Below, piece after piece: positions 1-13,709 of a stretch of 64,000 bases of DNA; position 1 is the stretch's first letter, and the number at the start of each line of letters is the position of its first letter. Under the pieces are notes generated by a model. That model searched no databases, was not told the origin of the DNA, and worked only from the letters and a program-made list of their open reading frames with translations. Made by a program: the position numbers and the translations under genes. The stretch is from Myxococcaceae bacterium (GTDB taxonomy: Bacteria > Myxococcota_A > Polyangia > Polyangiales > Ga0077539), in the NCBI GenBank assembly GCA_004297725.1, contig SCUS01000084.1, positions 1 through 64,000 of the forward strand. Direction: 5' to 3'.

Positions 1-103
1 GCCATCCACACCGCGAGGCACACGAGGACGTTGCAGAGCACCCCGAGCGTGAAGGCCTCGACGAAGCTCTCGTGCAGCTTGCCGTTGGCGATCGCGATGG
101 CCG
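1..103 (-). pseudogene. Formate/nitrite transporter (FNT family) remnant, cut by repeat copy 1 and by the window edge
   Basis: Read on the minus strand, this stretch gives AIAIANGKLHESF followed by VEAFTLGVLCN and VLVCLAVWM. That is the mid-protein FNT signature (FocA/NirC family, pentameric channels for formate, nitrite or hydrosulfide in the inner membrane). In intact FNT proteins roughly 130-150 residues precede this point. Here the upstream side is the 123-bp repeat, joined in frame, and no FNT N-terminal half follows in 227-374, which is followed at once by the stop of another gene. The 3' part lies outside the window, so whether the C-terminal half is intact is unknown. The N-terminal truncation makes a working channel unlikely. 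Family call is by motif recognition. Confidence 0.6.
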
Positions 104-226
104 GGGATGAGTCGTCCAACGCGGCACCCTCGCTGGCGCAGATCCGCTCGGGTTTACGGAGCATCCCGTGTACGAAGCACGCGCTCCCGCGAGCATTGGC
201 GGGAGCGCCCGGGACGCCACCTTGGC
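104..226. repeat. 123-bp dispersed direct repeat, copy 1
   Basis: First of three copies of a 123-bp sequence starting GGGATGAGTCG and ending CCACCTTGGC. Hand comparison finds no indels among the copies. Copy 1 differs from copy 3 at about four positions and from copy 2 at about six. It has no evident terminal inverted repeats and no flanking target duplication. Its left edge abuts the formate/nitrite transporter remnant. See the copies at 4175-4297 and 5109-5231. Confidence 0.9.
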
Positions 227-374
227 AGCAACGGGAGGGGGCCTGGGGCGGAGAGGTCGTTCGGTCGCCGCGGTGCTGATCCGTGCCCGGGAGAGCGCCG
301 CGTTGCTCTCTCAATACCGTCCATCCCGCGGTCATGGCGTCACGAACGTGCGCGCGGCCGCCCGGTATACCGCC

Positions 375-1733
375 TCAGTCGAGCCGCTCGACGGCGGGCA
401 TCGACCACGTGCCGCGCAGCGCCTCGGGTCGGGGCCAGTAGAGCCGCGCGTTCAGGAGGAAGGGCGCCCCCGCGCGCACGGGCAGCCAGTTGGCGCGCGC
501 TTCTCCGCGGGGGGGCGTCGCCTGCACCCAGAGGTCGAGCGAGCCGTCGGGGTTGGGGCGCAGCGCGTCGCGGTCGCCCACCGCGAAGCGTCCGGTGCCG
601 GTGTCGAGCAGCGCCTCGTCGGCGCCGTAGGCCGTCACCGACCAGAAGGCGTTCACGGGCGGCAGCGCACCGGCCGCGAAGTGAATGCGGTACCGATGGC
701 TCCCATCGAGGGCGTCGCCGCGGGCGTCTACGCGCGCGTTGGGGTACATCGCGTCGACGGGGAGGTTGGCCCCGAGGCCCGCCATCGCCACCGCGCCGCG
801 CACCGCGTAGTTCGTGCCGTAGCGCCCGAGGATCGATGGCGGCGTCGACCAGCCTCGCACGAGGTTCGGCGGGTTCTGTAGGCGACGCGCGATGGCGCGG
901 TCGGCGACCCAGCGGCCGATGCTCGCGCTCCAGCGGTCGAGCGCGTTCCAGCGGAGCGGGCGACCGGGCGCGACGCCCAGCGCGGCGAGCCGTCGCATCA
1001 TGGGCGCGTCGGCGGGCGTCGGCGGGTTGTCGACCATGAGCGCGGCGAGGCGCGTGAAGAAGGCCTCGGTGCTCATCGCGCGCACCTGCTCCACCGGCGG
1101 AGCGGGGCGCTGCGAGGCGGGGCGCCACGCGGGCGTCACGCGCGGCGCGAGGGGGCGCAGGGTGACGGCATCTTGCAGGCGGTGCACGAGGGGGTAGTCC
1201 GCGGCGCCGTTGGTCTGCGTGCGACCGATGAGCCACACGATGCGCGTCGGCGCGCGGAGCACGGCGAGCCCGTCGGGAGGTGTTCCCTGCCACGCGGGGC
1301 CCACGAGGAGGTAGCGGCCGCCCGCGGTGCCCGCGGTGCGCGTGCCGGGCGAGGCGAAGACGTTGGTCCACGCGTCCATGAAGGGGAAGAGCTCGTAGCG
1401 CACGGCGTTGGGGGCCATTTCGAAGACGAAGGGCCCGTCGTTCATGTCGATGAAGGCCGTGGTGTAGAGCGTGTCGACATTGGGCCGCACCACGCCGCGA
1501 AAGCGCGCGTCGGGAAACGCACGAACACGGAGCAGCCCGTTCGTGGGGCCCACGGTGAGCGCCGCGGCGGCGCGGGTCACGTCCATGATGACCAGGGGGT
1601 AGCCGAAGACGTAGGCCCGCGCGCCGTCGAGGGTGACCTTGAGGAGCACCCCGAGCACGATGACCGTGAGCGCGAGGAGCACCCGCGCGGAGCGTCGGCT
1701 CCGCTTCGGTACGAGGGGGCTCGGCTCGCGCAT
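375..1733 (-). CDS. DUF1254/DUF1214 domain-containing protein
   Basis: A 452-residue protein. Residues 17-36 form one hydrophobic N-terminal segment, a membrane anchor or signal. A DUF1254-type region follows at about 45-165, with the family phrase NVDTLYTTAFIDM near residue 85. A DUF1214-type region lies near the C-terminus at about 325-440, where VNAFWSVTAYG and LYWPRPEAL are typical. Proteins with both domains are widespread in proteobacteria and myxobacteria as envelope proteins of unknown biochemistry; some plant-cell-wall or lipid-related roles have been guessed but not shown. The gene is divergent from the membrane protein starting near 1760, and the region upstream of its ATG is very short. 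It lies between repeat copies 1 and 2 but is itself intact. Confidence 0.85.
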   Translation of the reverse strand: MREPSPLVPKRSRRSARVLLALTVIVLGVLLKVTLDGARAYVFGYPLVIMDVTRAAAALTVGPTNGLLRVRAFPDARFRGVVRPNVDTLYTTAFIDMNDGPFVFEMAPNAVRYELFPFMDAWTNVFASPGTRTAGTAGGRYLLVGPAWQGTPPDGLAVLRAPTRIVWLIGRTQTNGAADYPLVHRLQDAVTLRPLAPRVTPAWRPASQRPAPPVEQVRAMSTEAFFTRLAALMVDNPPTPADAPMMRRLAALGVAPGRPLRWNALDRWSASIGRWVADRAIARRLQNPPNLVRGWSTPPSILGRYGTNYAVRGAVAMAGLGANLPVDAMYPNARVDARGDALDGSHRYRIHFAAGALPPVNAFWSVTAYGADEALLDTGTGRFAVGDRDALRPNPDGSLDLWVQATPPRGEARANWLPVRAGAPFLLNARLYWPRPEALRGTWSMPAVERLD

Positions 1734-1759
1734 CCGGTGAGGGTCGCGCGGTCGCGGGC

Positions 1760-3571
1760 GTGGTGTACAGGACCGCTCGGCGCTGCGTGATGGTCGCCCC
1801 TGATGTGCGCCCCGTACTGCCCGGCGCCGCGGCCGCAGCCGACGCGCGGCGATTCGTCCTTCCCCGCCGCGCCCGCGGTCCTCGATTGCGTCGCCGCCGC
1901 CTCGCGGTCTACGACCGTGCGGTGGCGCCCGGCATCGACCTCCAGCTCCTGGGCCTGCGCGCGGCGTCCCTGCCCCTCACGCTCATCGTGCTGATGGTGC
2001 TCGCCGTCCCGGTCGCGCTGCCCTCCGCGGCGGTCGAGCTCGGGCGCCTCCCGACCTGCCGCCGCCGCGACGCCCTCTTCGCCGCCGCCCTCTTCGCCGT
2101 CGCGCTCGCGCTGCGCACGGCGCTCGGCTCGCACGCGCTCATCCACGAGAACCACCACGGGTACCGCTACCTCGCGTGGTCGTCGGCCCTCAACGTGCTC
2201 GCCGACGCGCACGGCGTCCCGTCGGCGCACCTCGTCCTCGTCCGCCTGGCCGGTGGGGGCGACTCCGGGGCCTTCGCCCTCGGTGCCGTGCTCTCCGCCG
2301 TCGCCGCGGTCGCGCTCGCGGCCTACACCGCGCAGGTCACCCGGTCGCGCCTCGCGGGCGCCGCCGCCGGCGCGCTGCTCGCGCTGCAACCCCTCGCCAT
2401 CGCCCTCGCGACCACCGAGGAGTTCATGGTCTCCGCGTCGGCGCTGTGCCTCGCGGGCGTCGCGCTGCTCCATGTCGGCGCCGCGCGCGGCCTCCGGGCG
2501 ACCACGGCCCTGGGCGTCCTGTGCCTCTCGCTCGCCGCGTGCGCGCGGGAGATCACGCTGCCCCTCGCCGCGCTCGCGGTGCCCGCGATGCTCTCCGCGC
2601 GCCGCCCCGACGGCACCACCCCGTGGCGCGCGACCGCGGCGGTGGTCGCGGCCATGACGGCGCTGCTGCTCCCGCAGGCGGCGCGGGTGGTGGCCGCGTG
2701 GCGCGCGCTGCCGTCGACGCCCGGCTACATGGGCGCGCCCAACCTGCCGTGGTCGGACGGGATGCACCGCAACGCGGCGTGGGTGGGCTGGATGGAGCCG
2801 TACATCCCGCGCGCCGAGGGCTGGGCCATGGTGCTCGCGCTCGCGGCGCTCGTCGCCTGGAGCCTCCGCACGAAGGACGCCCGCCTCGCGCTCGGCGCCG
2901 CGGTGGTGCCGCTGATCGCGCTCGCGCAGGGCGGCCTCGTGCGCACCGGGTGGTTTCCCACCGGGCTGCGCCACCAGCTGTTGTCCATGGCGATGCTGCT
3001 CATTCCGGTCGGGTGGGCCGTCGCCGCGGGGGCCGCGCGCCTCCCTCCGACGTGGCGTCGCGGCGCGCTCGCGGCCGTCGTCGCGCTCGCGGCCGTCGCG
3101 CTCTGGCGCCGACCCGCGGGCTACCGCATCGACGCCCCGCACACGCGCGAGTACCGCTTCTTCCACGACGCCCTCGCGACGCTCCCGGCCGACGGCTCCG
3201 TGGTGGAATTCTCCGACGAGCCGCTGCCCCACGTCGGCGCGGGCTGGGTGCGCGCGCAGCGCCCGCGGTGGGGCGCCGTCGACGCCGCCGCGCTCTCTCG
3301 GGAGCCTCCCCCGGGGCCGCTGTTTCTGCTGCTCGACCGCGTCTGCTTCGTCGACCCCGCCCGCTTCGAAGGCACCGCCCGTCCCGGCTCGGTCGTTCCC
3401 CGCGCCACGCCCTTCGGTCGCATGCTCCCGGAGTGCGCCGACGCCCTCGCCGCGCTCCCGTGGCGCACCGTCGCGATGCGCTCCATCTCCCGCGCGACGC
3501 CCCGCACCTACGACATCCCGAGCACCGACCCCGTCGCGCACCTCGCCATCCTCCGGTGGGACCACCCGTGA
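1760..3571 (+). CDS. Multi-pass membrane protein, possibly GT-C type glycosyltransferase
   Basis: About 600 residues. At least eight hydrophobic segments lie between residues 65 and 440, and a soluble C-terminal tail of about 150 residues follows. Acidic residues in the first loop (HALIHENHHGYRY) and the overall build resemble GT-C/GT39-like lipid-linked sugar transferases, but no decisive catalytic motif was recognised. The first 54 codons are Arg-rich and not convincing as protein, so the real start may be the GTG at 1922, which would place the first membrane segment at the N-terminus. The stop overlaps the GTG start of the next gene by four bases (GTGA), suggesting translational coupling. 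Function is inferred from topology only. Confidence 0.6.
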   Translation: MVYRTARRCVMVAPDVRPVLPGAAAAADARRFVLPRRARGPRLRRRRLAVYDRAVAPGIDLQLLGLRAASLPLTLIVLMVLAVPVALPSAAVELGRLPTCRRRDALFAAALFAVALALRTALGSHALIHENHHGYRYLAWSSALNVLADAHGVPSAHLVLVRLAGGGDSGAFALGAVLSAVAAVALAAYTAQVTRSRLAGAAAGALLALQPLAIALATTEEFMVSASALCLAGVALLHVGAARGLRATTALGVLCLSLAACAREITLPLAALAVPAMLSARRPDGTTPWRATAAVVAAMTALLLPQAARVVAAWRALPSTPGYMGAPNLPWSDGMHRNAAWVGWMEPYIPRAEGWAMVLALAALVAWSLRTKDARLALGAAVVPLIALAQGGLVRTGWFPTGLRHQLLSMAMLLIPVGWAVAAGAARLPPTWRRGALAAVVALAAVALWRRPAGYRIDAPHTREYRFFHDALATLPADGSVVEFSDEPLPHVGAGWVRAQRPRWGAVDAAALSREPPPGPLFLLLDRVCFVDPARFEGTARPGSVVPRATPFGRMLPECADALAALPWRTVAMRSISRATPRTYDIPSTDPVAHLAILRWDHP

Positions 3572-4101
3572 CGCGCCTCGCCCTGCTGCTGTGCCTCGCG
3601 CTCACGGCGTGTCGACCGACCCCCGAGGCGTGCGTCGACTGCGTGCTCCCGCCCGGTCAGGAGCCCGCCGTGGTGGCGATGCTCGGCGGCCGCGACACCC
3701 TCGGCGACGGGTGCCGGCTCGACCGCGCACGCATCGAGGGGGCCGTCGTGCGGGCGTTCTACCGGTGCGCCCCGGGGGAGGTCGCGCTCGCGCTGCACCA
3801 CGTCGGTCGGGCGCCCCGCGGGGCTTCGCGCGCCGGAGAATTCGCGCTGTCGACGGACGACCCGCGGGCGCGCCCGACGGGGCTCTTCGACGCGCTGCGG
3901 GCGCGGGTGCTGGCGCGCGGAGCGACGGTGCGCTGGGCCTCCGCGCGGCGCGACCGCGAGCACCACACGGTGGTGTCGGCGCGCGGGGCGTGGCTGCTCG
4001 CGCTGGCGCTCGGGGTGGCGATCGCCGCGCGGTCCGCGGTCGGGCGTCGCGGGGCTGCCGCTCCTCGTCGGTCGGCACCTCGAGGGTCTCGTCGAGGGTG
4101 A
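3568..4101 (+). CDS. Small lipoprotein of unknown function, 3' end possibly replaced
   Basis: Starts at a GTG overlapping the previous stop (GTGA). The N-terminus VTRLALLLCLALTACRP is a clear lipoprotein signal with lipobox LTAC, followed by CVDCVLPPG. The body of about 130 residues has no recognised domain. A hydrophobic stretch, WLLALALGVAIAA, lies near the end, giving a possible C-terminal membrane segment. The last 20 residues are Arg/Ala-rich, and from about 4040 the opposite strand looks more like coding. The gene's original 3' end may therefore have been lost where a foreign fragment joins, just before repeat copy 2. Signal peptide is seen directly; the truncation is inference. Confidence 0.5.
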   Translation: MTRLALLLCLALTACRPTPEACVDCVLPPGQEPAVVAMLGGRDTLGDGCRLDRARIEGAVVRAFYRCAPGEVALALHHVGRAPRGASRAGEFALSTDDPRARPTGLFDALRARVLARGATVRWASARRDREHHTVVSARGAWLLALALGVAIAARSAVGRRGAAAPRRSAPRGSRRG

Positions 4102-4172
4102 CCGCGCGGTTGACCGTGACGCGCAGCCGGGCCTCGCGGCGGGTCAGCGGCGGGCGCACGCCGGCGGTGTTA
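4040..4172 (-). pseudogene. Unrecognised coding remnant next to repeat copy 2
   Basis: The minus strand reads TAGVRPPLTRREARLRV, then TVNRAVTLDETLEVP and TDEERQPRD. This has protein-like composition, unlike the Arg-rich shadow frames nearby. It has no start of its own, begins within a few bases of repeat copy 2, and runs into the antisense side of the lipoprotein gene. It is best read as a fragment of an unknown gene left at a recombination junction. Family not recognised. Confidence 0.3.
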
Positions 4173-4174
4173 GG

Positions 4175-4297
4175 GGGATGAGTCGTCCAACGCGGCACCC
4201 TCGCTGGCGCAGATCCGCTCGGGTTTACGGAGCATCCAGTGTACGAAGCACGCGCTCCCGCGTGCATTGGCAGGAACTCCCGGGACGCCGCCTTGGC
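4175..4297. repeat. 123-bp dispersed direct repeat, copy 2
   Basis: Second copy, same orientation and length as copy 1, with about two differences from copy 3 and six from copy 1. On the minus strand the internal frame that begins at an ATG (MLRKPERICASEGAALDDSS) ends at a TAA just past the repeat here, unlike in the other two copies. The bases from 4298 to 4461 hold no recognisable gene. Confidence 0.9.
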
Positions 4298-4461
4298 GGG
4301 TCTCCGTGCGCGGGAGCGCGTGCGGCGCGGTGCTACGGCCCGCGCGTGTGCGCCGTGGGGGCGCGGGTCGTTCGGTCTTCACGGACCGTGAACTCTTGGG
4401 GAGGGCCTGCGCGTTGAACAGGCGGGGATTGAGCGCTGAGAGGCGCGAGCGAGGGGACGGG

Positions 4462-5040
4462 TCAGACCGAGAGGTAGATCGAGAGAGCGATGTGTTCTGG
4501 AACCTGGACCGGATCGGTGATCTCCCAGAAGCGCGCGGGGTCGTCCTCGATCGACGTGTCCTGTCGGAACTCGAGGTCGATGGCCTCGAACGGATCGTCG
4601 GTCAGCATCACCCAGCCCCAGTTGTAGCCGACGGTGATGGTCTTCCAGTCCTCGCGAAGGAACATCATCTCGTCGTTCATCATGCCGATAGGGAAGGCGG
4701 GCGGCCGGGTCTTCTTCCTCCCCCTTTCCCCAAGGAGGTACTCCTCGACCTCGTAGGGGCGGACGATCTTGAGAGTGCGCGCGGTGGTAAACGCGCCGCA
4801 TCCGAAGTCGAGGCTCCGCGGGCCGAGCACGTTCATGCCGAATCCGCCGAATCGCTCAAGCAACTGGCGCGCGAGCGCGTGCATCGGAAGGAACGGCTCG
4901 CGGAAGTAAGGCTCCCGCGCGAGAGAGTGAGGGTCCGCGCGCCACTGCTCGCTCCACCCCGCGGCTCGAAACGCCGAGAAGAGTTCGGGATACTTCTCCG
5001 ACTTCCCGCGCAGGTAACCGTCAAAGGGATTGCCCTCCAT
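4462..5040 (-). CDS. SUKH-3-like (SMI1/KNR4 superfamily) immunity-type protein
   Basis: A 192-residue soluble protein starting MEGNPFDGYLRGK. The phrases FRAAGW near residue 25, LLERFGGFGMNVLG at about 60-73, FPIGMMNDEMMFL at about 115-127 and NWGWVMLTDDPFEAI fit the SUKH-3 branch of the SUKH superfamily. Those proteins commonly act as antidotes to secreted or contact-dependent polymorphic toxins. No toxin gene is visible beside it. It lies between repeat copies 2 and 3 like a cassette. Its base composition is lower than its neighbours: bases 4621-4680 are 53% G+C by hand count, which fits transfer. The reading frame stays open upstream through repeat copy 3, but the ATG at 5040 is the natural start. 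Domain call is by eye; a non-immunity SUKH role is possible. Confidence 0.6.
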   Translation of the reverse strand: MEGNPFDGYLRGKSEKYPELFSAFRAAGWSEQWRADPHSLAREPYFREPFLPMHALARQLLERFGGFGMNVLGPRSLDFGCGAFTTARTLKIVRPYEVEEYLLGERGRKKTRPPAFPIGMMNDEMMFLREDWKTITVGYNWGWVMLTDDPFEAIDLEFRQDTSIEDDPARFWEITDPVQVPEHIALSIYLSV

Positions 5041-5108
5041 CGCTGGAACCTCGCATCGCCGGAGTATCGCCGGAGAGATTATCAAGGGGCTTTGGCTCGT
5101 TTGGCTGT

Positions 5109-5231
5109 GGGATGAGTCGTCCAACGCGGCACCCTCGCTGGCGCAGATCCGCTCGGGTTTACGGAGCATCCAGTGTACGAAGCACGCGCTCCCGCGAGCA
5201 TTGGCAGGAACTCCCGGGACGCCACCTTGGC
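5109..5231. repeat. 123-bp dispersed direct repeat, copy 3
   Basis: Third copy, again 123 bp and in the same orientation. Its minus-strand ATG frame (MLRKPERICASEGAALDDSS) continues without a stop into the SUKH-3-like gene, adding about 25 linker residues. Its right edge abuts another orphan coding fragment on the plus strand. Confidence 0.9.
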
Positions 5232-5235
5232 GGTC

Positions 5236-5434
5236 CGACGACACCTTCGAGGGCCTCGTCGGCGGCGGGATTCCGGCCGCGGGCATGATCGCCGCGACGG
5301 GGACGCTGCTCATCGGGTCCGACCTGATGAGGCTCGTGCGGCGGCTGATCCTGTCGATCACCGACCTCGACCCTGACGACGATGGCAACTGCCGGTCGTT
5401 CTCGGCGGCGGTGGCCTTCGACGGGCGCGCGGCG
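5236..5434 (+). pseudogene. Unrecognised coding remnant next to repeat copy 3
   Basis: The plus strand reads DTFEGLVGGGIPAAG, MIAATGTLLIGSDLM and RLVRRLILSITDLDPDD, then GNCRSFSAAVAFDG. This is natural-looking protein sequence with no start codon of its own. It begins at the right edge of repeat copy 3 and ends in the tandem palindrome array. It is probably the 3' part of a gene whose 5' part was lost at the junction. No family recognised. Confidence 0.35.
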
Positions 5435-5492
5435 TTCACAGACTCTGTGAACGCAGTCACAGACTCTGTGAACGCAGTCACAGACTCTGTGA
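5435..5492. promoter_or_regulatory. Three tandem 15-bp palindromes in 21-bp phase (candidate operator array)
   Basis: The palindrome TCACAGA-C-TCTGTGA occurs perfectly at 5436-5450, 5457-5471 and 5478-5492; the first extends to 17 bp (TT...AA). The spacing is exactly 21 bp, two helical turns, so all three face the same side of the helix. The array ends 78 bases before the ATG of the ferritin-like lipoprotein gene at 5571. Dyad symmetry with helical phasing suggests cooperative binding of a dimeric repressor or activator; no regulator was identified. An alternative is a chance tandem duplication of a coding heptapeptide (TDSVNAV) in the preceding remnant. Confidence 0.5.
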
Positions 5493-5570
5493 CCGTCCGA
5501 CCTGACCTCGACCGCTCGGGACGGCGCTCGTGCTGTCGCGGGAGGCGCGTCCCGCGTAGAGTCCCGCGCG

Positions 5571-6554
5571 ATGAGAACCATGGGGATGGGGACCCTGCTC
5601 GCGCGCCTGGTCGCGCTGGCGCTGCCGCTCGCCGGATGCTGCGAGACGACGCACCACACCGCGTACGTCGACGCCGACGGTGGCACCGTCGCCGGCCCCG
5701 CGAGCGGCGACGCCGGCGTCGGTGACGCCGCGACGACCGGGCCGCTCAACTGCCAGGCGCTCTGCCTCCAGCCCATCATCGGCCGGTGCCTCGGCTGGGA
5801 GATCGAGTCCTGCGAGCGGGCCGATCCGTCGGGCAACACGATCACCTGCCGCTACGTCGACACGCAGTGCCCCGACATGCTCCCGCTTCCCAGGACGACC
5901 TGCGGTCGGCGCACCGACGGCGTCGCGCCCGCGAGCGCGGTCGGTGACGATGCGACCGGTCGCGCGCTCGCGCAGATGGCGGCGCTCGAGGCGGCGTCGA
6001 TCCCGGCGTTTGCGCGGCTCGGGCGGGAGCTCGCCGCGCACGGTGCGCCCGCGTCGCTGCGACGTTCGGTCGAGCGCGCGCGACGCGACGAGGTGCGCCA
6101 CGCGGCGACGATGCGCGGCCTCGCGCGAGCGCACGGCGCGGCCGTGGGGAGGGTGACGGGCCGCGCCGCCGGCGGGGTGCGGCCGCTCGCGACGCTGGCG
6201 ATCGAGAACGCCGTCGAGGGGTGCGTGCGCGAGACCTGGGGCGCGGCGGTGGCGAGGTTTCAGGCCGAGCGCGCGGTCGACCCGGCGCTGCGTCGGGCGA
6301 TGGCGACGATCGCGCGCGACGAGGCGCGGCACGCGGCGCTCGCGTGGCGGGTGCGCGCGTGGGCGCAGACGAGGCTCGACGCGACGGCGCGGGCGGCCTG
6401 CGCGCGGGCGCTGCGCGAGGAGGTGAGCGCGTTGCGGCGCGAGCTCGATGGGTGCTTCGACGACGCGACGGCGCGGGCGCTCGGCGTACCGACGGGCGCG
6501 GCGGCGCGGGCGCTGGCGGGCGCGATCGACGGCGCCCTGTGGGGCCGGGCGTGA
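5571..6554 (+). CDS. Ferritin-like domain lipoprotein
   Basis: A 327-residue protein with a lipoprotein signal ending PLAGC (Cys23). A Cys-containing linker follows at 24-111 (six Cys between 61 and 111), then a four-helix ferritin-like region from about 127 to 300. The expected di-iron ligands are visible: Glu140, a Glu174-x2-His177 pair (DEVRHA), Glu residues near 212-221, and Glu251-x2-His254 (DEARHA). Surface-tethered ferritin-like proteins are common in myxobacteria, usually of unknown substrate. The domain could oxidise iron or another small molecule in the periplasm; this is inference. Alternative ATG starts exist at 5580 and 5586. The stop overlaps the GTG start of the next gene (GTGA). 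The palindrome array lies upstream. Confidence 0.75.
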   Translation: MRTMGMGTLLARLVALALPLAGCCETTHHTAYVDADGGTVAGPASGDAGVGDAATTGPLNCQALCLQPIIGRCLGWEIESCERADPSGNTITCRYVDTQCPDMLPLPRTTCGRRTDGVAPASAVGDDATGRALAQMAALEAASIPAFARLGRELAAHGAPASLRRSVERARRDEVRHAATMRGLARAHGAAVGRVTGRAAGGVRPLATLAIENAVEGCVRETWGAAVARFQAERAVDPALRRAMATIARDEARHAALAWRVRAWAQTRLDATARAACARALREEVSALRRELDGCFDDATARALGVPTGAAARALAGAIDGALWGRA

Positions 6555-7069
6555 GCGCGCGGCGCGCGGCGGCGCTGTCGCTGTCGACGGTGCTGATGGG
6601 CGCGGCGGGGGCGCAGGCTGATCCGCGCTTCACGGTGACGTGGCACCCGCTCGCGGCGCTCTCGTACGGCTGGCAGTTCGAGTTCGAGGCCGCGCCCTCG
6701 CGCTGGATCTCCGTGCACGCGACGCCGACCACGGTGTTCACCGTCGACGATGGGGTCCCTCGCCCGCTGGGCTTCGCGATGGATGTCGGCGTGCGGGCGT
6801 TTCCGTTCGCGCGCGCCCCGTCGGGCTTCCTGCTCGGCGCGCACGTCGGCGCCGCCACCTGGAACGTCGCGGGCCTCACGCCCACCGCGGATGGCCTCGC
6901 GCTGCGCGGCGGCGTCACGGTCGGGTACACGTTCGTGTTCGCGCGACGTTTCGTGCTCTCGGTGGGCGGCGGCGGGGAGTACGTGCGCTTCACGTCGTCC
7001 CGGCAGCGGGCCGAGAGCGATGGGTGGGTGTGGCCCTTCGTGCGCCTGGCCGCGGGCGTGGCGTTCTGA
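6551..7069 (+). CDS. Small outer-membrane beta-barrel-like protein
   Basis: 172 residues from a GTG overlapping the previous stop. The signal-like N-terminus VSARRAAALSLSTVLMGAAGAQA ends in AQA. The mature part alternates hydrophobic and aromatic residues in beta-strand style (FTVTWHPLAALSYGWQFEFE, LLGAHVGAATWNVAGL, GVTVGYTFVFARRF) and ends VRLAAGVAF with a terminal Phe, the usual signal for outer-membrane barrel assembly. Length suits an eight-stranded barrel. It is translationally coupled to the ferritin-like lipoprotein gene, so the two may act together at the outer membrane. Confidence 0.6.
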   Translation: MSARRAAALSLSTVLMGAAGAQADPRFTVTWHPLAALSYGWQFEFEAAPSRWISVHATPTTVFTVDDGVPRPLGFAMDVGVRAFPFARAPSGFLLGAHVGAATWNVAGLTPTADGLALRGGVTVGYTFVFARRFVLSVGGGGEYVRFTSSRQRAESDGWVWPFVRLAAGVAF

Positions 7070-8527
7070 TCGGCGCGGGCGGCGCCAGCGCAGGGCCCCG
7101 TCAGCGGCGCGCCCGGGGCCGTACCCGTCGTCGTCGCGCCGTCCGCGAGCGCGCAGCGGTCCCGGCACGACCCGCGGTCGCAGTACGAGCCCGTGGGGCA
7201 GGTCACGGCGAGGCAGTCGTCGGTGACGCAGCGACCATCGGGCGCGCAGACGAGTCCCGCCGGACACGACGCGCACGTGCAGCTGTACTGGCACTGCCCG
7301 AACCCCGGCAGTCGCCCATCGTTCTGGCAGACCTGGTCGCCCTCGCAGAACGCCTCGTCGCACGCGTCGACGCACCCGCCCGCGCGGCACTGCTGACCGA
7401 AGGGGCACGTCACACCCTCGCAGAGGCCCACGCAGGCGCCTGCACGGCAGCGTTGTCCGGTCGGGCACGCGACCGACTCGCACCCGTCGTCGACGCACGT
7501 CTCGCGCGCGGAGCACACGCGCCCGGCAGGGCAATCACGGCCGGTCGGACAGCGGGCCGCGCACCGCCCTCGATCGCAGACCTCGCCCTCGCCGCAGAGG
7601 GCTGCGCTGTCGTCGACGCGCCCGTCGCAGTCGTTGTCGAGGCCGTTGCAGCGCGCGGCCTGCGGTCGCCGCAGCGGTTGGCAGTACGTGTCGAAGCTCC
7701 CGCGGCAGAGCGTGACCCCGTCGGCGCAGACGCCCGCCCGACCGGGGACCACGCACGGCGTCCCCGCGCCGACGCACCCACCGTAGTCGGAGACGCCGAC
7801 GATGGAGAAGCGATGGAGCCCGGCCTCGCCGCCGGGGACGTTCGAGGTCTGGCAGAGCTCGCCGATGGCCGCGGTGCGCGAGGTCGGGAGCGCGTAGAAG
7901 TTTCGTCGGTTGCCCGCGTCGAAGCCGACCTGGGCGTGGGCGCCGTCGGCCCCGGCGGTCCATTCGCAGCGGTGGTAGCGAAACTCGAGGTCGACGCGGT
8001 CGACGTTGGGGCAACGGAACGACGTCGTCACGATGAGCTGGAAGTCGTCGCGCGCGCCGTCGCGGTCGGCGCTGCGTCGCACGTCGTGCCAGGTCACGAC
8101 CAACCGCCCGGGCTCGAGGTGGAAGCAGACCGCGTTGCCGCCCGGGCGCGGCCCCGCCGCGCGTGTCGACATCCGCCCACCAGGGCGCGATCATCGGCCG
8201 TCCAGCGACCGGAAAGACGGCGGGCGTCGGATCGACGAGGGGCGCGGCGAAGGTGATGTTGCCGTTGGTGTTGACGAAGAAGTGATCGACCCGCGCCTCG
8301 AACAGAGACAGCCCCTCGGGGAAGGCCGCGCGGAGGTCGATGGCCACCGGCGTCGCGCGCGCATCGGGGTGCGGACCGGCATAGGAGCCGTCGTCGCTCG
8401 GATGCACGCAGTGCTCGGCGAGACCGTACCCGTCGGGTCCGCCGAAGCCGCGCAGCAGCGGGATCGCGCCGACCGGGGAGATCCGCAGCGCGAGGGAGGC
8501 CGCGACGAGCAGTGGGGTCGGGCGCAT
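7070..8527 (-). pseudogene. NIDO-like / MXAN-type Cys-rich surface protein, frameshifted
   Basis: The ATG at 8527 opens a signal-like N-terminus (MRPTPLLVAASLALRISPVG). A NIDO-type region follows (DHFFVNTNGNITFAAP, MIAPWWADVDTR). The matching continuation, GGNAVCFHLEPGRLVVTWHDV, then FRYHRCEWTAG and FSIVGVSDYGGCVG, is one frame away. The shift lies within about 8140-8172, a GC-rich run. Downstream is a Cys-rich segment with a MopE-like phrase (CNGLDNDCDGRVDDSA) and repeated CPxGxxCxxGxC units. The second frame has no stop until 5842, across the antisense genes, so the true C-terminus is unclear; recognisable protein ends near 7140. This is either a decaying gene or a base-call error. Such proteins are normally exported surface or matrix proteins of unknown role. 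Confidence 0.6.
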
Positions 8528-8628
8528 GGGTGAGCGCGCACCGTCGCACGAGCGCGAGCGGGTCGAAAGCGAACGCCGGGCGTCGTCACCTCCCCTCTCC
8601 CGCGCTGGGCCCCCGCGTTGCATCTGCG

Positions 8629-10126
8629 ATGACCATGCGACGTCTCTCTCGCGGCTGCGCGATCGTGCTGCTGGCCGGATGCCTCGACCGCGAGCCCATC
8701 GAGGCGCCGTCCTGCGTGCACGCCGACGTGCAGCTGCATCTCGCGAACAACGGCCCCAACCTGCTCGACCTCCTTCTCGTGCTCGATGACTCCGCGCCGA
8801 TGGGTCCCCGCGCGGCGGCACTCTCCCGCGCGCTCGCCGGCGTGGCCGAGGCCGTCGTTCACCCGGTCGGCGCGGAGGCCCTCGCGAGCGCCCACGTCGC
8901 GGTCGTCTCCGCCGACCTCGGAACCCACGGCACCGCCGTCGCGGGCTGCACCGACGCGGGCGACGACGGCGCGTTCAGCCCGCGGGCGTGCCCCGCCGCG
9001 CGGGTTCCGCTGCCGGCCTTCCTGCGCTTCGGCACCGACGAAGACGACTCTCCGCAGGGCCTCGCGGACTTCGCGTGCGCGACCGACCTCGGCGCCGAGG
9101 GCTGCGCCGTGCAGCAGCCGCTGGAGGCCGCGTGGCGCGCGCTGACCGTTCACGCCGCCCAGCCCGGCGCCGACCCGGCCGCGGGCTTCCGGCGACCCGA
9201 CGCGTGGCTCGCCATCGTGGTCATCTCTCCGCAGGACGACGCCTCGGTGCGCGACTGTCGCCGCGCCGACCCCGGCGCGCCGTGCGACGACGCGACCGAC
9301 GTCTTCGACCCGGCGAGCTCGCGCTGGGCCGAGGCCTCCCTCCGCGACCGCCTGACCCGCTACGCCGACGGATCACCGCAGGACCCCACCTGGTCGCTCG
9401 ATCGGTACATCGAGCGCAGCCACCCCGACCGGGGATTCACCGGACTCCATCCCTTCCACCCGGAGCGAGTCGTCTTCGCGGTCGCGACCTCCGTTCCGCT
9501 CGACCCGCCGACCACGCCGTGGGGCACCGTCGACTGGGACGCGCTGCTCGCCACCACGACGGTCGAGCGCCCGCTCCCGCGACGGCTCATCGAGACGGCG
9601 CGCCGCTTCGCCGAGACGTACAACACGGGCTTCCTCCTCTCGATCGAGCGCGACGACTACGCGCCGCTGGTGCGCCCGCTGCTCGATCGACTGCTCGCGA
9701 CGCCATGGGGGCGATGCCTCCCGCTGGTTCTTCCGACCCAGGCATCACCGACGTGCTGCGATCCCATGGGGCGACCGCTGGGCTGCGTAGAGCCACCGTC
9801 GTGTCGCGATCCGACCGCGACGACGGTGCGCTGCGACGTGACCGGAGCTGCTGAGCGCGACGACCGACCCGGCCGAGTGGTGCACGGCCGCGCACGGGCG
9901 ACGGCGCGTGGCCGACCGCGAGGGGCACGCCGCGTGTCGCATCGACCAGATCCCCGTGCCGGCCGGAACCTCCCCGCCGCGCGGCGCGCACGGGTTCTAT
10001 TCGGACACCGTCCGCGACGCGCAGACGCAGTGTGCGCAGCGCATCTCGTATACCCGCGGCGATGGCTTGCGGCCGCGCAGCCAGGCGGTCCTCGACTGCG
10101 TTCGCGCCACGCCCGACGGCTGTTGA
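8629..10126 (+). pseudogene. VWA-like lipoprotein, frameshifted near its 3' end
   Basis: The ATG at 8629 (or 8635) gives a lipoprotein signal ending LLAGC. A von Willebrand A-like start follows (LLDLLLVLDDSAPMGPRA, a MIDAS-like D-x-S arrangement). About 400 residues in total have protein-like composition to CDVTG near 9840. The natural continuation, LLSATTDPAEWCTAAHG then HAACRIDQIPVPAGT, is in the next frame and ends at 10126, so one extra base (or two missing) lies within about 9836-9850. Myxobacterial relatives are surface lipoproteins of unknown ligand. The gene diverges from the equally frameshifted Cys-rich gene, 101 bp away. The damage may be real decay or a sequence error. Confidence 0.6.
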
Positions 10127-10287
10127 CGGCGCCTACCGGCGTTGGCGATCGGTCGCCGCGCCGGCCACCGCGGTTGCCTGCGTCGTCACGCCCCGGCGGG
10201 CGGCTGCGCCGACCCCCACTCCGAAGCTCAGGCCCTCAAAGGGGCCCTTGCCCGCGCATGGGGCACTGTGGCTCCCTCGCGCCCGTC

Positions 10288-11409
10288 ATGGTGGTCCCTT
10301 CGCAGGCCCGCGGGCGGCGACGCCCCCTCCTCGCGCTGCTGTTGGCGGCGCTGTCGGGGTGTTCCAACCAGCAGCAGGTGGTGCTCGACGAGGAGCGCGT
10401 CGCGAGGCGCGTGGTGGCGCTGCTGCGACAGCAGGGGCTGGTGGTACGGCGCTCCCCGGACGGCGGGCGCCCCTCGGAAGAAGAGGGCGCCGAGGCCGAC
10501 GAGGAGAGCGGCGACGGGGAGTCGGCGGAGGCGGGCGACGACGGCGATCCCTCGCGGCCCGAGGAGGGGGATGGCTCAGCGAGGGCGGACGCCGACGCCG
10601 CGGCCGATCGGGTGAGGGCGATGGCGCTCGCGGCGCTTCAGCGGGCGCAGGCGAGCGCAGCGGCGGTCCCTGCGGCGAGGCGAGCGGGGAGGGCGAGGCC
10701 CGCGCTGCCGACGACCACCAGCACCCCGGCGGTCGCGACCGGGGCGGGTGATTCGCGGCGGGTGTGGGTCCCGGTGGCGGACGCTCCCTCGCTCGGGCCG
10801 GCCGACGCGCCCGTCACCGTCGTGGCCTTCCTCGACCCCGAGTGCCCCTTCTGCGCGCGGCTCCTCCCGGCGCTGCTGGCGGCCCGCGAGGCGCATCCCT
10901 CGGACGTGCGCCTGGTGGTGCGGCTGCGCCCTCTGGCGCACCACCGCGGAGCCTGGGGGGCCTCGGTGCTGCTCGGGCTCGCGAAGGCACAGCGGGGCAG
11001 CGAGGGCTTCTTCGCGGCGCTGAGCTACCTCTACGCCGACGCCAACCAGCGCTCGCTCGACCGCGCCTCGCTCGACCGCCACGCCGCCGCCCTCGGGCTC
11101 GACGTGCTGCGCCTCGCCGACGCCCTCGACTCGCCGACCCCGACGGACCTCGACCGCGCCATCGCCAACGACGACGCCATCGCCGAGTCGGTGCCCGTGC
11201 TGGGCACGCCCTCGATGCTCATCAACGGGGCCTTCGTCTCCGGCGCCATCCCCCGGGAGCGCATCGAGGAGCACATCGCCCACGAGCTCCGCCGCGCCCG
11301 CGCGGCCCTCGCCTCCGGCGCTCGCCGCGCCGCCCTCTACGACACCCTCGCGCGCACCGCCGCGCCCGGCCTCGCCAACCCGCAGCCCCGGAACCGTCGC
11401 ACCCCGTGA
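10288..11409 (+). CDS. DsbA/DsbG-like thioredoxin-fold lipoprotein
   Basis: 373 residues. The lipoprotein signal ends ALSGC (Cys25). An acidic low-complexity spacer follows at about 65-110, then a thioredoxin-fold domain from about 165 to 345. The active site is CPFC (Cys186, Cys189) in FLDPECPFCARLLP, and the cis-proline loop is GTPSM (Pro308). A helical insert between them fits the DsbA class rather than plain thioredoxin. It should oxidise or isomerise disulfides of exported proteins, apt here because several neighbouring gene products are Cys-rich. Gene start is chosen at the ATG giving the signal peptide. Its TGA overlaps the GTG start of the next gene. Confidence 0.8.
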   Translation: MVVPSQARGRRRPLLALLLAALSGCSNQQQVVLDEERVARRVVALLRQQGLVVRRSPDGGRPSEEEGAEADEESGDGESAEAGDDGDPSRPEEGDGSARADADAAADRVRAMALAALQRAQASAAAVPAARRAGRARPALPTTTSTPAVATGAGDSRRVWVPVADAPSLGPADAPVTVVAFLDPECPFCARLLPALLAAREAHPSDVRLVVRLRPLAHHRGAWGASVLLGLAKAQRGSEGFFAALSYLYADANQRSLDRASLDRHAAALGLDVLRLADALDSPTPTDLDRAIANDDAIAESVPVLGTPSMLINGAFVSGAIPRERIEEHIAHELRRARAALASGARRAALYDTLARTAAPGLANPQPRNRRTP

Positions 11410-13709
11410 GCACCCACTCCCCCCGCCTCCCCATCGGCCCGATCGCGCTGCTCGCGTCCCTCCTGTACGCCGCCGCCGCGCTCTCGCAGCCCGCGCCTCC
11501 CACGCCGCCCGCCGCGACGCCCGCCGCGACGCCCGCCGCGACGCCCGCGCCCGCGGTGACGGTGCTCGCGGCGCCGCCAATCATCACGGCGCCGCTGACC
11601 TGCTCGCACGGCGCGCTGCGCTCGCTGGTGATGAGCGACCTCTGGTCGCGCTTGCCCGCGGTGTGCGCTCGGGTGCAGGCCATCGAGCCCTTGCGCTTCG
11701 AGCCCGCGCCCGGGGTCGATCGGGCCACCCACGCGGGCCTGCTGGCCCTCTGCGCCGAGGGGCGCTCGGCCCGCTTCGTCTGCGGCCTCGACGCATACCG
11801 CCGCGACCTGCTGATCGCCCGCTTCGACGCGCACGTCACCGCGGTGACCCAGCGCGCCGAGACCGCGCGCAGGCTCTGCCCCGAGGTGGAGCTCGCCGCG
11901 GCCTTCGCGGAGAGCGCGCCGGAGCCCGTCCGCGCGGAGGTGCGCGCGGCCCTCACGGACACCGCGGCCTTCTGCAACGTGGTCGACGGCTTCGTCCCGA
12001 CGGCGGCGCAGCTCGCGCTGGTGCGGCGCGCCCGCGAGGTGGCCGTCGCCGCCCGGGGGCGCAACCTCACCCCCGACGCCTCCGGCGTCACCGCCCTCTG
12101 GACCGCCTCCGGACCGCTCCCTGGCGCGCCGCCTCCCATCGGCGGCGCCGACCGCGGCGAGGGCCACGGCGCCCAGAGCGGCGGCGCGGAGTCCTCCGCC
12201 GAGAGGGACACCACCACCCTCCCCGGCGCCGCGGGCCTGGTGGAGGTGGCGCTCCGGGGCATCGCCAACCTCCTGGTGTCGCGGGCCCAGGCGGAGGTCG
12301 AGGGCTTCATGCTCGACCAGCTCCGGGACATCATCTGCACCGGCGACGCTAGGCCGTGGTTCGAGCACACCTGCGCCTATCTGGTCGCGCCCGACGCTGC
12401 CCTGCGCATCACCGCGGGGTCGGCGCTGCGCACGGCCTTCCAGGCCGACGTGGTGGGCTTCCCGAGGCAGGTCGCGAGCCGCACTCCCCGCGAGGGAGAG
12501 GCGCGCACGCTCACCGGTCGGCTGTGGTTCCAGCTGCTGGCGGCGGCGACGGAGTCGCGGGTGCTCATCGACCTGGGAGACCGCTTCTCCCAGGTGGGAT
12601 CGGACTTCACCTGCACCGGCCGGGAGCCCGAGCTCTGCCAGCAGGCGAAGCTGGCCGTCGAGGGCAGCGGGCTCCTCATGGCCTACGCGATGAACCGGGC
12701 AGACCTGGAGACCATGTCTCCGACGATGTTCCACGCGATGCTGGAGACGGTGTACGCGCGCTCGCTGAGCGTCGACGCCATGGGCCCGGTGGAGGCGCTG
12801 CGCCCCTCGCTCCTCGAGCTCCGCAACACCCTCTCCTTCGCGCAGACCCCTCGCCTCAGCAACAACGCCCGCATCCCCCGCGTGGGCGCGCTGCTCACCG
12901 CCATGGGGGTGGTCTTCGACCGCGGCGTCGAGGTGGCCTTCTTCGACCGCCGCGGAGGAGAGCGGGTGCGCCTGCACGAGGGCATCCCGGCGATGTACGC
13001 CGCGGTGATGCGGGGGGAGCTCACGGAGATCGCCGTGCTCTCCCAGCGGGCGCTGGTGGTGGTGCTTCCCGTCGCGGGGCTCTCTCCGGACGTCACCCGC
13101 GGCATGGTGCTGGCGGCGGAGATCGCCCAGGCCCGCACGCCCGAGCAGATCAGGGTGGCGCTGGAGTCGGTGGTGACGCCGCCGGGGGCGTGGAGGCTCA
13201 AGCGCCGCCGGCCGATGCTCTCCATCACCGGCCTCGTGGGCGTGGCGGGCGGCGGAGAGATCATCCTCGCGAGCGGCGTCTCCGGTGGGGCGATGGTCCC
13301 GAGCGTGGGGCTGGTCGGGGCGCTGGGGCTCGACGTGAGCTTCCCGGTGCGCTCCTCCACGCTGGGCTTCTACGTGTCGGTCATCGACCTCGGGGCGCTG
13401 CTCTCGCTGCCGCTCGGCGACGCCAGCGTGCGCCTCCGCGGCGCCGACGGCGTCGAGCGGTCGGCCACCCTCGACGTGACCAGCCGCATCTCCCCCGAGC
13501 AGGTGCTCTCTCCAGGGATCTTCTTCCGCTGGGGCATCGGTCGCTCTCCCTTCGTGTTCGCGGCGGGCGCCTCGATGGTGCCCTTCGGCCGCCACGTGCA
13601 GGAGACCCGCGCCGCGGCCAACGGGCCGGAGGCGGCCTTCAGCGCCGACGCCAGCGTCTTCCGGCTGAGCGCGATGCTGGCGGTCGACCTGACGCTGTTC
13701 CCGTTCTGA
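11406..13709 (+). CDS. Large exported protein of unknown function
   Basis: 767 residues from a GTG overlapping the previous stop by four bases. A signal-like N-terminus is followed by a Pro/Ala tandem (PAATPAATPAATPAP, about residues 33-50). A long, mostly helical region with scattered Cys pairs spans about 60-590. The final 150 residues look like beta-strands (LGFYVSVIDLGALLSLPLG, FVFAAGASMVPFG) and end MLAVDLTLFPF with a terminal Phe, suggesting an outer-membrane barrel. No family recognised. Coupling to the DsbA-like gene suggests that the latter may help fold this Cys-containing product. Confidence 0.55.
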   Translation: MSTHSPRLPIGPIALLASLLYAAAALSQPAPPTPPAATPAATPAATPAPAVTVLAAPPIITAPLTCSHGALRSLVMSDLWSRLPAVCARVQAIEPLRFEPAPGVDRATHAGLLALCAEGRSARFVCGLDAYRRDLLIARFDAHVTAVTQRAETARRLCPEVELAAAFAESAPEPVRAEVRAALTDTAAFCNVVDGFVPTAAQLALVRRAREVAVAARGRNLTPDASGVTALWTASGPLPGAPPPIGGADRGEGHGAQSGGAESSAERDTTTLPGAAGLVEVALRGIANLLVSRAQAEVEGFMLDQLRDIICTGDARPWFEHTCAYLVAPDAALRITAGSALRTAFQADVVGFPRQVASRTPREGEARTLTGRLWFQLLAAATESRVLIDLGDRFSQVGSDFTCTGREPELCQQAKLAVEGSGLLMAYAMNRADLETMSPTMFHAMLETVYARSLSVDAMGPVEALRPSLLELRNTLSFAQTPRLSNNARIPRVGALLTAMGVVFDRGVEVAFFDRRGGERVRLHEGIPAMYAAVMRGELTEIAVLSQRALVVVLPVAGLSPDVTRGMVLAAEIAQARTPEQIRVALESVVTPPGAWRLKRRRPMLSITGLVGVAGGGEIILASGVSGGAMVPSVGLVGALGLDVSFPVRSSTLGFYVSVIDLGALLSLPLGDASVRLRGADGVERSATLDVTSRISPEQVLSPGIFFRWGIGRSPFVFAAGASMVPFGRHVQETRAAANGPEAAFSADASVFRLSAMLAVDLTLFPF

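What the first reader, a model, noticed from the sequence alone, without database searches (positions are those of the whole stretch)
5435..5492. Three perfectly phased palindromes before a ferritin-like lipoprotein gene
TCACAGAcTCTGTGA occurs three times at an exact 21-bp step. Identical dyads on one helix face are what cooperative binding of a dimeric regulator needs, and the array is 78 bp before the start of an operon with a di-iron domain and a barrel protein.
Basis: partly seen in the sequence, partly recalled or inferred. Interest (0 to 1): 0.55.

Follow-up and report, generated by a model that had tools for sequence, protein, structure and literature searches.

The report
Dispersed helix-phased intergenic palindrome repeat
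The three neat palindromes are real, but they are one copy of a small repeat that is scattered between unrelated genes in this bacterium and some relatives, so they are more likely a mobile-type genomic repeat than the switch of the neighbouring iron-protein gene.

Summary
In detail: TCACAGACTCTGTGA stands three times at an exact 21-bp step (5436-5492). The operator reading mostly fails. Genome-wide the 15-mer occurs seven times, only in three arrays, each with a 21-bp step. Two of these arrays lie between the 3' ends of convergent genes. A looser search found two more arrays in this genome and twelve in three other genomes: 17 arrays, 36 units. The unit is GTTYAC-N7-GTRAAC (19 bp) plus a 2-bp spacer, mostly GC. 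The arrays are intergenic, in convergent, codirectional and divergent settings, next to genes without a common theme. In one relative, mostly unrelated flanks share only the ~40-bp element. At one orthologous site two relatives differ by exactly one 21-bp unit. At the murB site three sister genomes have no array. In the window the array replaces the last codons of a gene fragment; the one close orthologue of the ferritin-like gene lacks it upstream. Best reading: a REP/BIME-like dispersed palindromic element, probably undescribed, without the usual REP tags and in low copy. Why the step is always exactly two helix turns is open; binding of a dimeric protein is the main rival. Transposase association was not tested.

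The parts
5434..5452 (.). unit 1 of the array, perfect 19-bp palindrome GTTCACAGACTCTGTGAAC
5453..5454 (.). 2-bp spacer GC
   Evidence: GC in 14 of 19 spacers of 17 arrays
5455..5473 (.). unit 2, AGTCACAGACTCTGTGAAC
5474..5475 (.). 2-bp spacer GC
5476..5494 (.). unit 3, AGTCACAGACTCTGTGACC
5446..5461 (.). junction of units 1 and 2, TGTGAACGCAGTCACA (CRP-consensus-like TGTGA-N6-TCACA); the second junction is 5467-5482
   Evidence: 5 such places in the genome, 4 of them inside the three same-core arrays and the fifth inside another array of the family (C28)
5246..5434 (+). 3' fragment (63 codons) of a gene; relatives end ...AFVNP-stop; the array replaces the last three codons and the stop
5571..6554 (+). 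ferritin-like (di-iron type) lipoprotein gene downstream; neighbour, not shown to be controlled by the array
   Evidence: orthologue in G001 without the array

Best explanation
The array is a three-unit member of a family of short dispersed intergenic repeats of this bacterial family. The module is a 19-bp palindrome with arms GTTYAC/GTRAAC and a 7-bp core, followed by a 2-bp spacer; 2 or 3 modules make an element of 40 or 61 bp. Shown: copies sit between unrelated genes with mostly sharp edges, a site occupied here is empty in three sister species, and the number of modules at one orthologous site differs by exactly 21 bp between two species. Inferred: the element spreads like REP/BIME/REPIN elements, perhaps as single-stranded hairpins moved by a transposase acting in trans; modules are gained and lost by slippage or recombination between units; copies survive mainly where insertion is harmless, i.e. 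between genes and often just after a stop codon, where a transcript would carry a strong hairpin. Any effect on the ferritin-like operon would be incidental.
For: Own genome: 7 of 7 core copies in three arrays with 21-bp step; two further arrays with other cores, C28 and C41. Order-wide search: 22 places in 8 of 183 genomes against 4 places in 4 genomes for the reversed control; the single hits in G004, G091, G120 and G123 are at the control rate and were dropped. Kept: 17 arrays, 36 units. In G009 most pairs of arrays share only 32-53 bp at 88-100% identity between unrelated flanks; exceptions are L168/L169 (163 bp), the two L166 copies (67 bp, 88%) and the L167 copies (63 bp at 97%, 82 bp at 82%). 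G009:C295 and G011:C607 are orthologous (92% over 1965 bp) and hold the same two arrays; one has 2 units in G009 and 3 in G011. Empty murB site in G001, G003 and G004, with 1 bp between the two stop codons. Settings with a crude gene caller: 4 convergent, 6 codirectional, 3 divergent, 4 with only one neighbour found. Array edge within 40 bp of a gene's 3' end in at least 9 of 17 arrays. Arms covary: C-G/T-A exchange at the fourth position, no broken pair there in 21 distinct units; covariation score above all 500 shuffles and all slid controls. REPs are reported mainly in convergent and codirectional gaps, near 3' ends, and as dimers, some with 1-2 bp spacers (PMC3733652, sections 14 and 15 read).
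Against: Copy number is low (5 arrays in 9.4 Mb here; 7 found in G009), against >100 usual for REPs (PMC2817692, start of abstract in a search listing). No GTAG tag at 34 of 34 ends; CGTC at only 5. No transposase was linked; none was sought genome-wide. No target-site duplication was seen at the murB site, where about 51 bp differ, more than the element itself. The strict 21-bp step is not explained by mobility. The other four genomes of the genus have no copy beyond chance with the patterns used. G009 and G044 share a 115-bp stretch at 100%, in G009 near a transposase gene, so some copies may have moved inside larger elements or may be MAG contamination.
Confidence: 0.68

Rival explanations
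1. A helix-phased binding array for a dedicated dimeric DNA-binding protein (CRP/FNR-like or nucleoid-type) with a dispersed, not promoter-bound role.
For: 19 of 19 steps are 21 bp in 17 arrays (the pattern fixed the step, the searches did not). The arms and the junction GTRAAC-GC-GTTYAC are more conserved than the cores. TGTGA-N6-TCACA occurs 5 times in the genome and all five lie in such arrays, 0 in the reversed control. The 21-bp indel keeps phase.
Against: Positions have no promoter logic and neighbours no theme. Sites are gained and lost between close species. No isolated single sites with the window core exist at up to 1 mismatch, unlike a usual regulon. The MrpC consensus TGTYN8RAC (PMC4320627, passages) is not met at the G after TGT.
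Confidence: 0.2
2. An operator array that regulates the ferritin-like operon.
For: 78 bp before the start codon, phased palindromes; some other arrays (C41, G011:C180, G009:C1787:1713) lie between divergent genes.
Against: The orthologue in G001 lacks it; same-core arrays lie between convergent genes; no sigma-70-type promoter match in 5000-7400, though such a scan says little for this group.
Confidence: 0.06
3. Transcription terminator or mRNA 3'-end hairpin, bidirectional between convergent genes.
For: RNA folding z-scores of -4.9 to -8.0 for three arrays on both strands; position at or just after gene ends at C10, C106, C28 and the window.
Against: No T-run (for the window; none visible in the flanks). 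Invariant core letters at three loci are not needed by a hairpin. Three arrays lie between divergent genes. Hairpins of this size are rare elsewhere in the sampled genome.
Confidence: 0.15
4. Chance, assembly artefact or a coding heptad repeat.
For: 21 bp is seven codons and frames through the array are open; the genome is a draft in 197 contigs.
Against: Expected count 0.002; spacers and flanks differ between loci; intact relatives end the upstream gene before the array; related arrays in other genomes.
Confidence: 0.01

Closest known systems
REP / BIME / REPIN elements (PMC3733652: abstract and sections 14-16 read; PMC3116915 and PMC2817692: search listing only)
   Same: Small palindromes, intergenic, dispersed, paired, unit number variable, mostly in convergent and codirectional gaps near 3' ends; dimers with 1-2 bp spacers are reported.
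   Different: Low copy number, no consistent GTAG or CGTC tag, fixed 21-bp step, units of two kinds in genus g2 (fully palindromic GTTCAC-AGGWCCT-GTGAAC and GTTTAC-ATGANNN-GTAAAC); no transposase linked so far. PMC3733652 does not mention the myxobacterial names searched.
CRP-family operators, e.g. MrpC of Myxococcus (PMC4320627, passages)
   Same: The junction matches TGTGA-N6-TCACA, the CRP consensus as recalled.
   Different: Not tied to promoters; gained and lost between species; MrpC consensus TGTYN8RAC not met.
Bidirectional intrinsic terminators
   Same: Strong hairpin between convergent genes in some copies.
   Different: No T-run; letters conserved beyond pairing; also between divergent genes.

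Membership tests
REP elements | short palindrome (20-40 bp), dispersed, extragenic | tested here: met
   17 arrays in intergenic stretches of four genomes, one overlapping a gene call by 15 bp
REP elements | arrangement in pairs or clusters | tested here: met
   15 arrays of two and 2 of three units; most were found by a two-unit pattern, but the single-site search also gave only arrays
REP elements | GTAG or CGTC tag at one end | tested here: not met
   GTAG 0 of 34 ends, CGTC 5 of 34
REP elements | high copy number | tested here: not met
   5 arrays in the own genome; strict patterns may miss diverged copies
REP elements | RAYT transposase flanked by the repeat | not tested
Promoter operator of the ferritin-like operon | conserved in front of orthologues | tested here: not met
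   one close orthologue (G001), no array
Promoter operator of the ferritin-like operon | overlaps the promoter | not testable with these tools
   no transcription start data
CRP-type binding site | TGTGA-N6-TCACA | tested here: met
   binding itself not testable
Intrinsic terminator | hairpin followed by a T-run | tested here: not met
   hairpin yes, T-run no

The most novel reading that the evidence does not exclude
A new kind of bacterial interspersed element whose unit length is set by the DNA helix: each module carries a dimeric protein site, modules are added or lost only in whole 21-bp steps so that all sites stay on one face, and the element spreads with the protein that binds it, giving a mobile, self-phasing nucleoprotein array.
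Probability: 0.15. Interest if true: 0.7.

Novelty: new variant of a known kind. Interest (0 to 1): 0.42.

Why it matters
REP-like elements are well known in Pseudomonas and enterics. Searches of the open paper library found no description for this group (only CC-licensed papers). A low-copy family with an exact two-turn step makes it testable whether such repeats are protein sites, RNA hairpins or both. It also warns that a neat dyad array in front of a gene need not be its operator.

Tried and rejected
Exact two-copy core pattern in GTDB contigs, IMG/VR, plasmids and phages by BLAST: no match. Order-wide with up to 3 mismatches: only the own genome. Core letters in the paper library: 0 papers. 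Looser CACAGNNNCTGTG pairs in GTDB: 14 stretches; by eye mostly heptad-like tandem or terminator-like sequence (not tested further), plus two loci in Pseudonocardia spinosispora. General unit pattern in IMG/VR and a G009 copy against plasmids and phages: none. Twenty sites with 2-3 mismatches were read and look like coding sequence by eye, not tested formally. Comparison with the gene before the C106 array gave only distant paralogues. Rfam: no match in 1-12000. Scan of 615,635 bases for similar palindrome pairs at any step from 17 to 26: five pairs, all at 21, four printed and belonging to the arrays, the fifth not printed. Scan for any 19-bp units with six paired arm positions at steps 19-23: 11 array hits at 21, and 3 unrelated hits at other steps; the own-genome arrays have imperfect outer arms in one unit and are not counted by that scan. 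Integron attC was considered for the 125-bp repeat near the array and left open.

Full report
What is there. Three copies of TCACAGACTCTGTGA stand at 5436, 5457 and 5478 with a 21-bp step. As 19-bp units with 2-bp spacers the array spans 5434-5494.

Genome-wide. The window is part of a 9.39-Mb draft genome in 197 contigs. The core, with up to one mismatch, occurs seven times and only in arrays: three here, two at C10:50847-50882 and two at C106:502199-502234, all at 21-bp steps, with 0 matches of the reversed control. This search did not fix the step. With up to three mismatches there are 63 sites against 22 for the control; the 20 such sites that I read look coding by eye (not tested formally).

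The other arrays. The C10 array lies between the stop codons of a multihaem cytochrome-type gene (gap 6 bp) and murB (gap 1 bp), pointing at each other; C106 is also convergent, gaps 12 and 42 bp. In G001, G003 and G004 the same murB gap is 1 bp and empty; G002 gave no murB match. So the C10 array was probably gained in the lineage of this genome. C10 and C106 share 43 bp with three differences, two of which exchange a T-A for a G-C pair across the palindrome. The search for the CRP-like junction TGTGA-N6-TCACA gave five places, four in these arrays; the fifth led to an array with another core at C28.

The family. The general pattern TCACA-N5-TGTGA-N6-TCACA-N5-TGTGA, up to three mismatches, gave 22 places in 8 of 183 genomes of the order; the reversed control gave 4 places in 4 genomes. 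Dropped as chance-like: the single three-mismatch hits in G004, G091, G120 and G123. Kept, with one more array seen on a fetched contig (L170:2456): 17 arrays, namely 5 in the own genome, 7 in G009, 4 in G011 (same family) and 1 in G044 (another family, identical over 115 bp to G009:C49). The 36 units align without gaps as GTTYAC-N7-GTRAAC; 14 of 19 spacers are GC. Over 21 distinct units the arms covary: pair 4 is C-G in 16 and T-A in 5 with none broken, and the covariation score exceeds 500 of 500 shuffles and every slid control. Two of the five measures did not exceed the shuffles: pairs with a change on both sides (151 of 500 as high) and further pair types (461 of 500). Relatedness can inflate shuffle results; the slid controls keep it.

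Dispersed and dynamic. Within G009 most pairs of arrays share only the element itself, 32-53 bp, between unrelated flanks; exceptions are L168/L169 (163 bp), the two L166 copies (67 bp, 88%) and the L167 copies (63 bp at 97%, 82 bp at 82%). G009:C295 and G011:C607 are 92% identical over 1965 bp and carry the same two arrays; one differs by exactly one 21-bp unit. By a crude codon-usage gene caller 4 arrays are convergent, 6 codirectional, 3 divergent and 4 have one neighbour only (the window counted with its upstream gene fragment, L170:2456 placed from the genes listed there). Neighbours include DnaB, AAA ATPases, transposases, a 5'-nucleotidase, an alcohol dehydrogenase, murB and a cytochrome: no theme.

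In the window. 5246-5434 is the 3' end of a gene; six of six relatives read here (G001, G003, two in G004, two own paralogues) end ...AFVNP-stop, and here the array begins in place of the last three codons and the stop. The fragment starts where a ~125-bp dispersed repeat ends. The ferritin-like gene follows after 78 bp. Its one close orthologue, in G001, has another upstream gene and no array.

How it most likely works. Shown: dispersal, gain, unit-number change, intergenic placement. Inferred: spread like REP-type elements and unit gain or loss by slippage. Single strands fold strongly: as long hairpins in the own genome and as two separate hairpins in a G009 copy; RNA folds likewise for the own-genome arrays. 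Known REPs sit mainly in convergent and codirectional gaps close to 3' ends, and some dimers have 1-2 bp spacers (PMC3733652, abstract and sections 14-16). But tags are missing, copy number is low, and a RAYT was not sought. I therefore call it REP-like, not a REP.

What stays open. The step is 21 bp in 19 of 19 cases. Most arrays were found with a pattern that fixed it, so the unbiased support is the own genome. A dimeric protein reading half-sites on one face would explain it; a hairpin would not need it. That is the main rival and the basis of the novel case. The contigs of G009, G011 and G044 that carry arrays are short, so contamination is possible for some copies. A placement near Polyangiales-type myxobacteria is recalled from gene content and genome size; no call names the genome.

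Noticed in passing
window 104-226, 4175-4299, 5100-5240: A ~125-bp dispersed repeat, 97-100% identical in the window; 20 matches in the genome at 71-100% identity; on the five other contigs with several listed copies all copies share one orientation, cassette-array-like; GTCCAAC near its start resembles an attC R'' box (recalled).
   Followed up: partly
window 5246-5434: A truncated 3' gene fragment that starts where the third copy of that repeat ends; full-length paralogues at C99 and C10 in the same genome.
   Followed up: partly
L006:6428-7187: The gene before the C106 array is split over two frames, perhaps a frameshift or assembly error.
   Followed up: no
L066:3100-3260, L073:4900-5000 (Pseudonocardia spinosispora): A different intergenic repeat, TTCACAGACGCTGTGGCTGAG, also in 21-bp tandem steps in a distant phylum; two arrays and a third single site with two mismatches.
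   Followed up: partly
L168:3616-3730 and L173:1-115: 115 bp around an array are identical in two genomes of different families, in G009 near a transposase gene: recent transfer or contamination.
   Followed up: no
window 5571-6551: The ferritin-like lipoprotein belongs to a family with 8 matches in this genome and 9 in G001.
   Followed up: no
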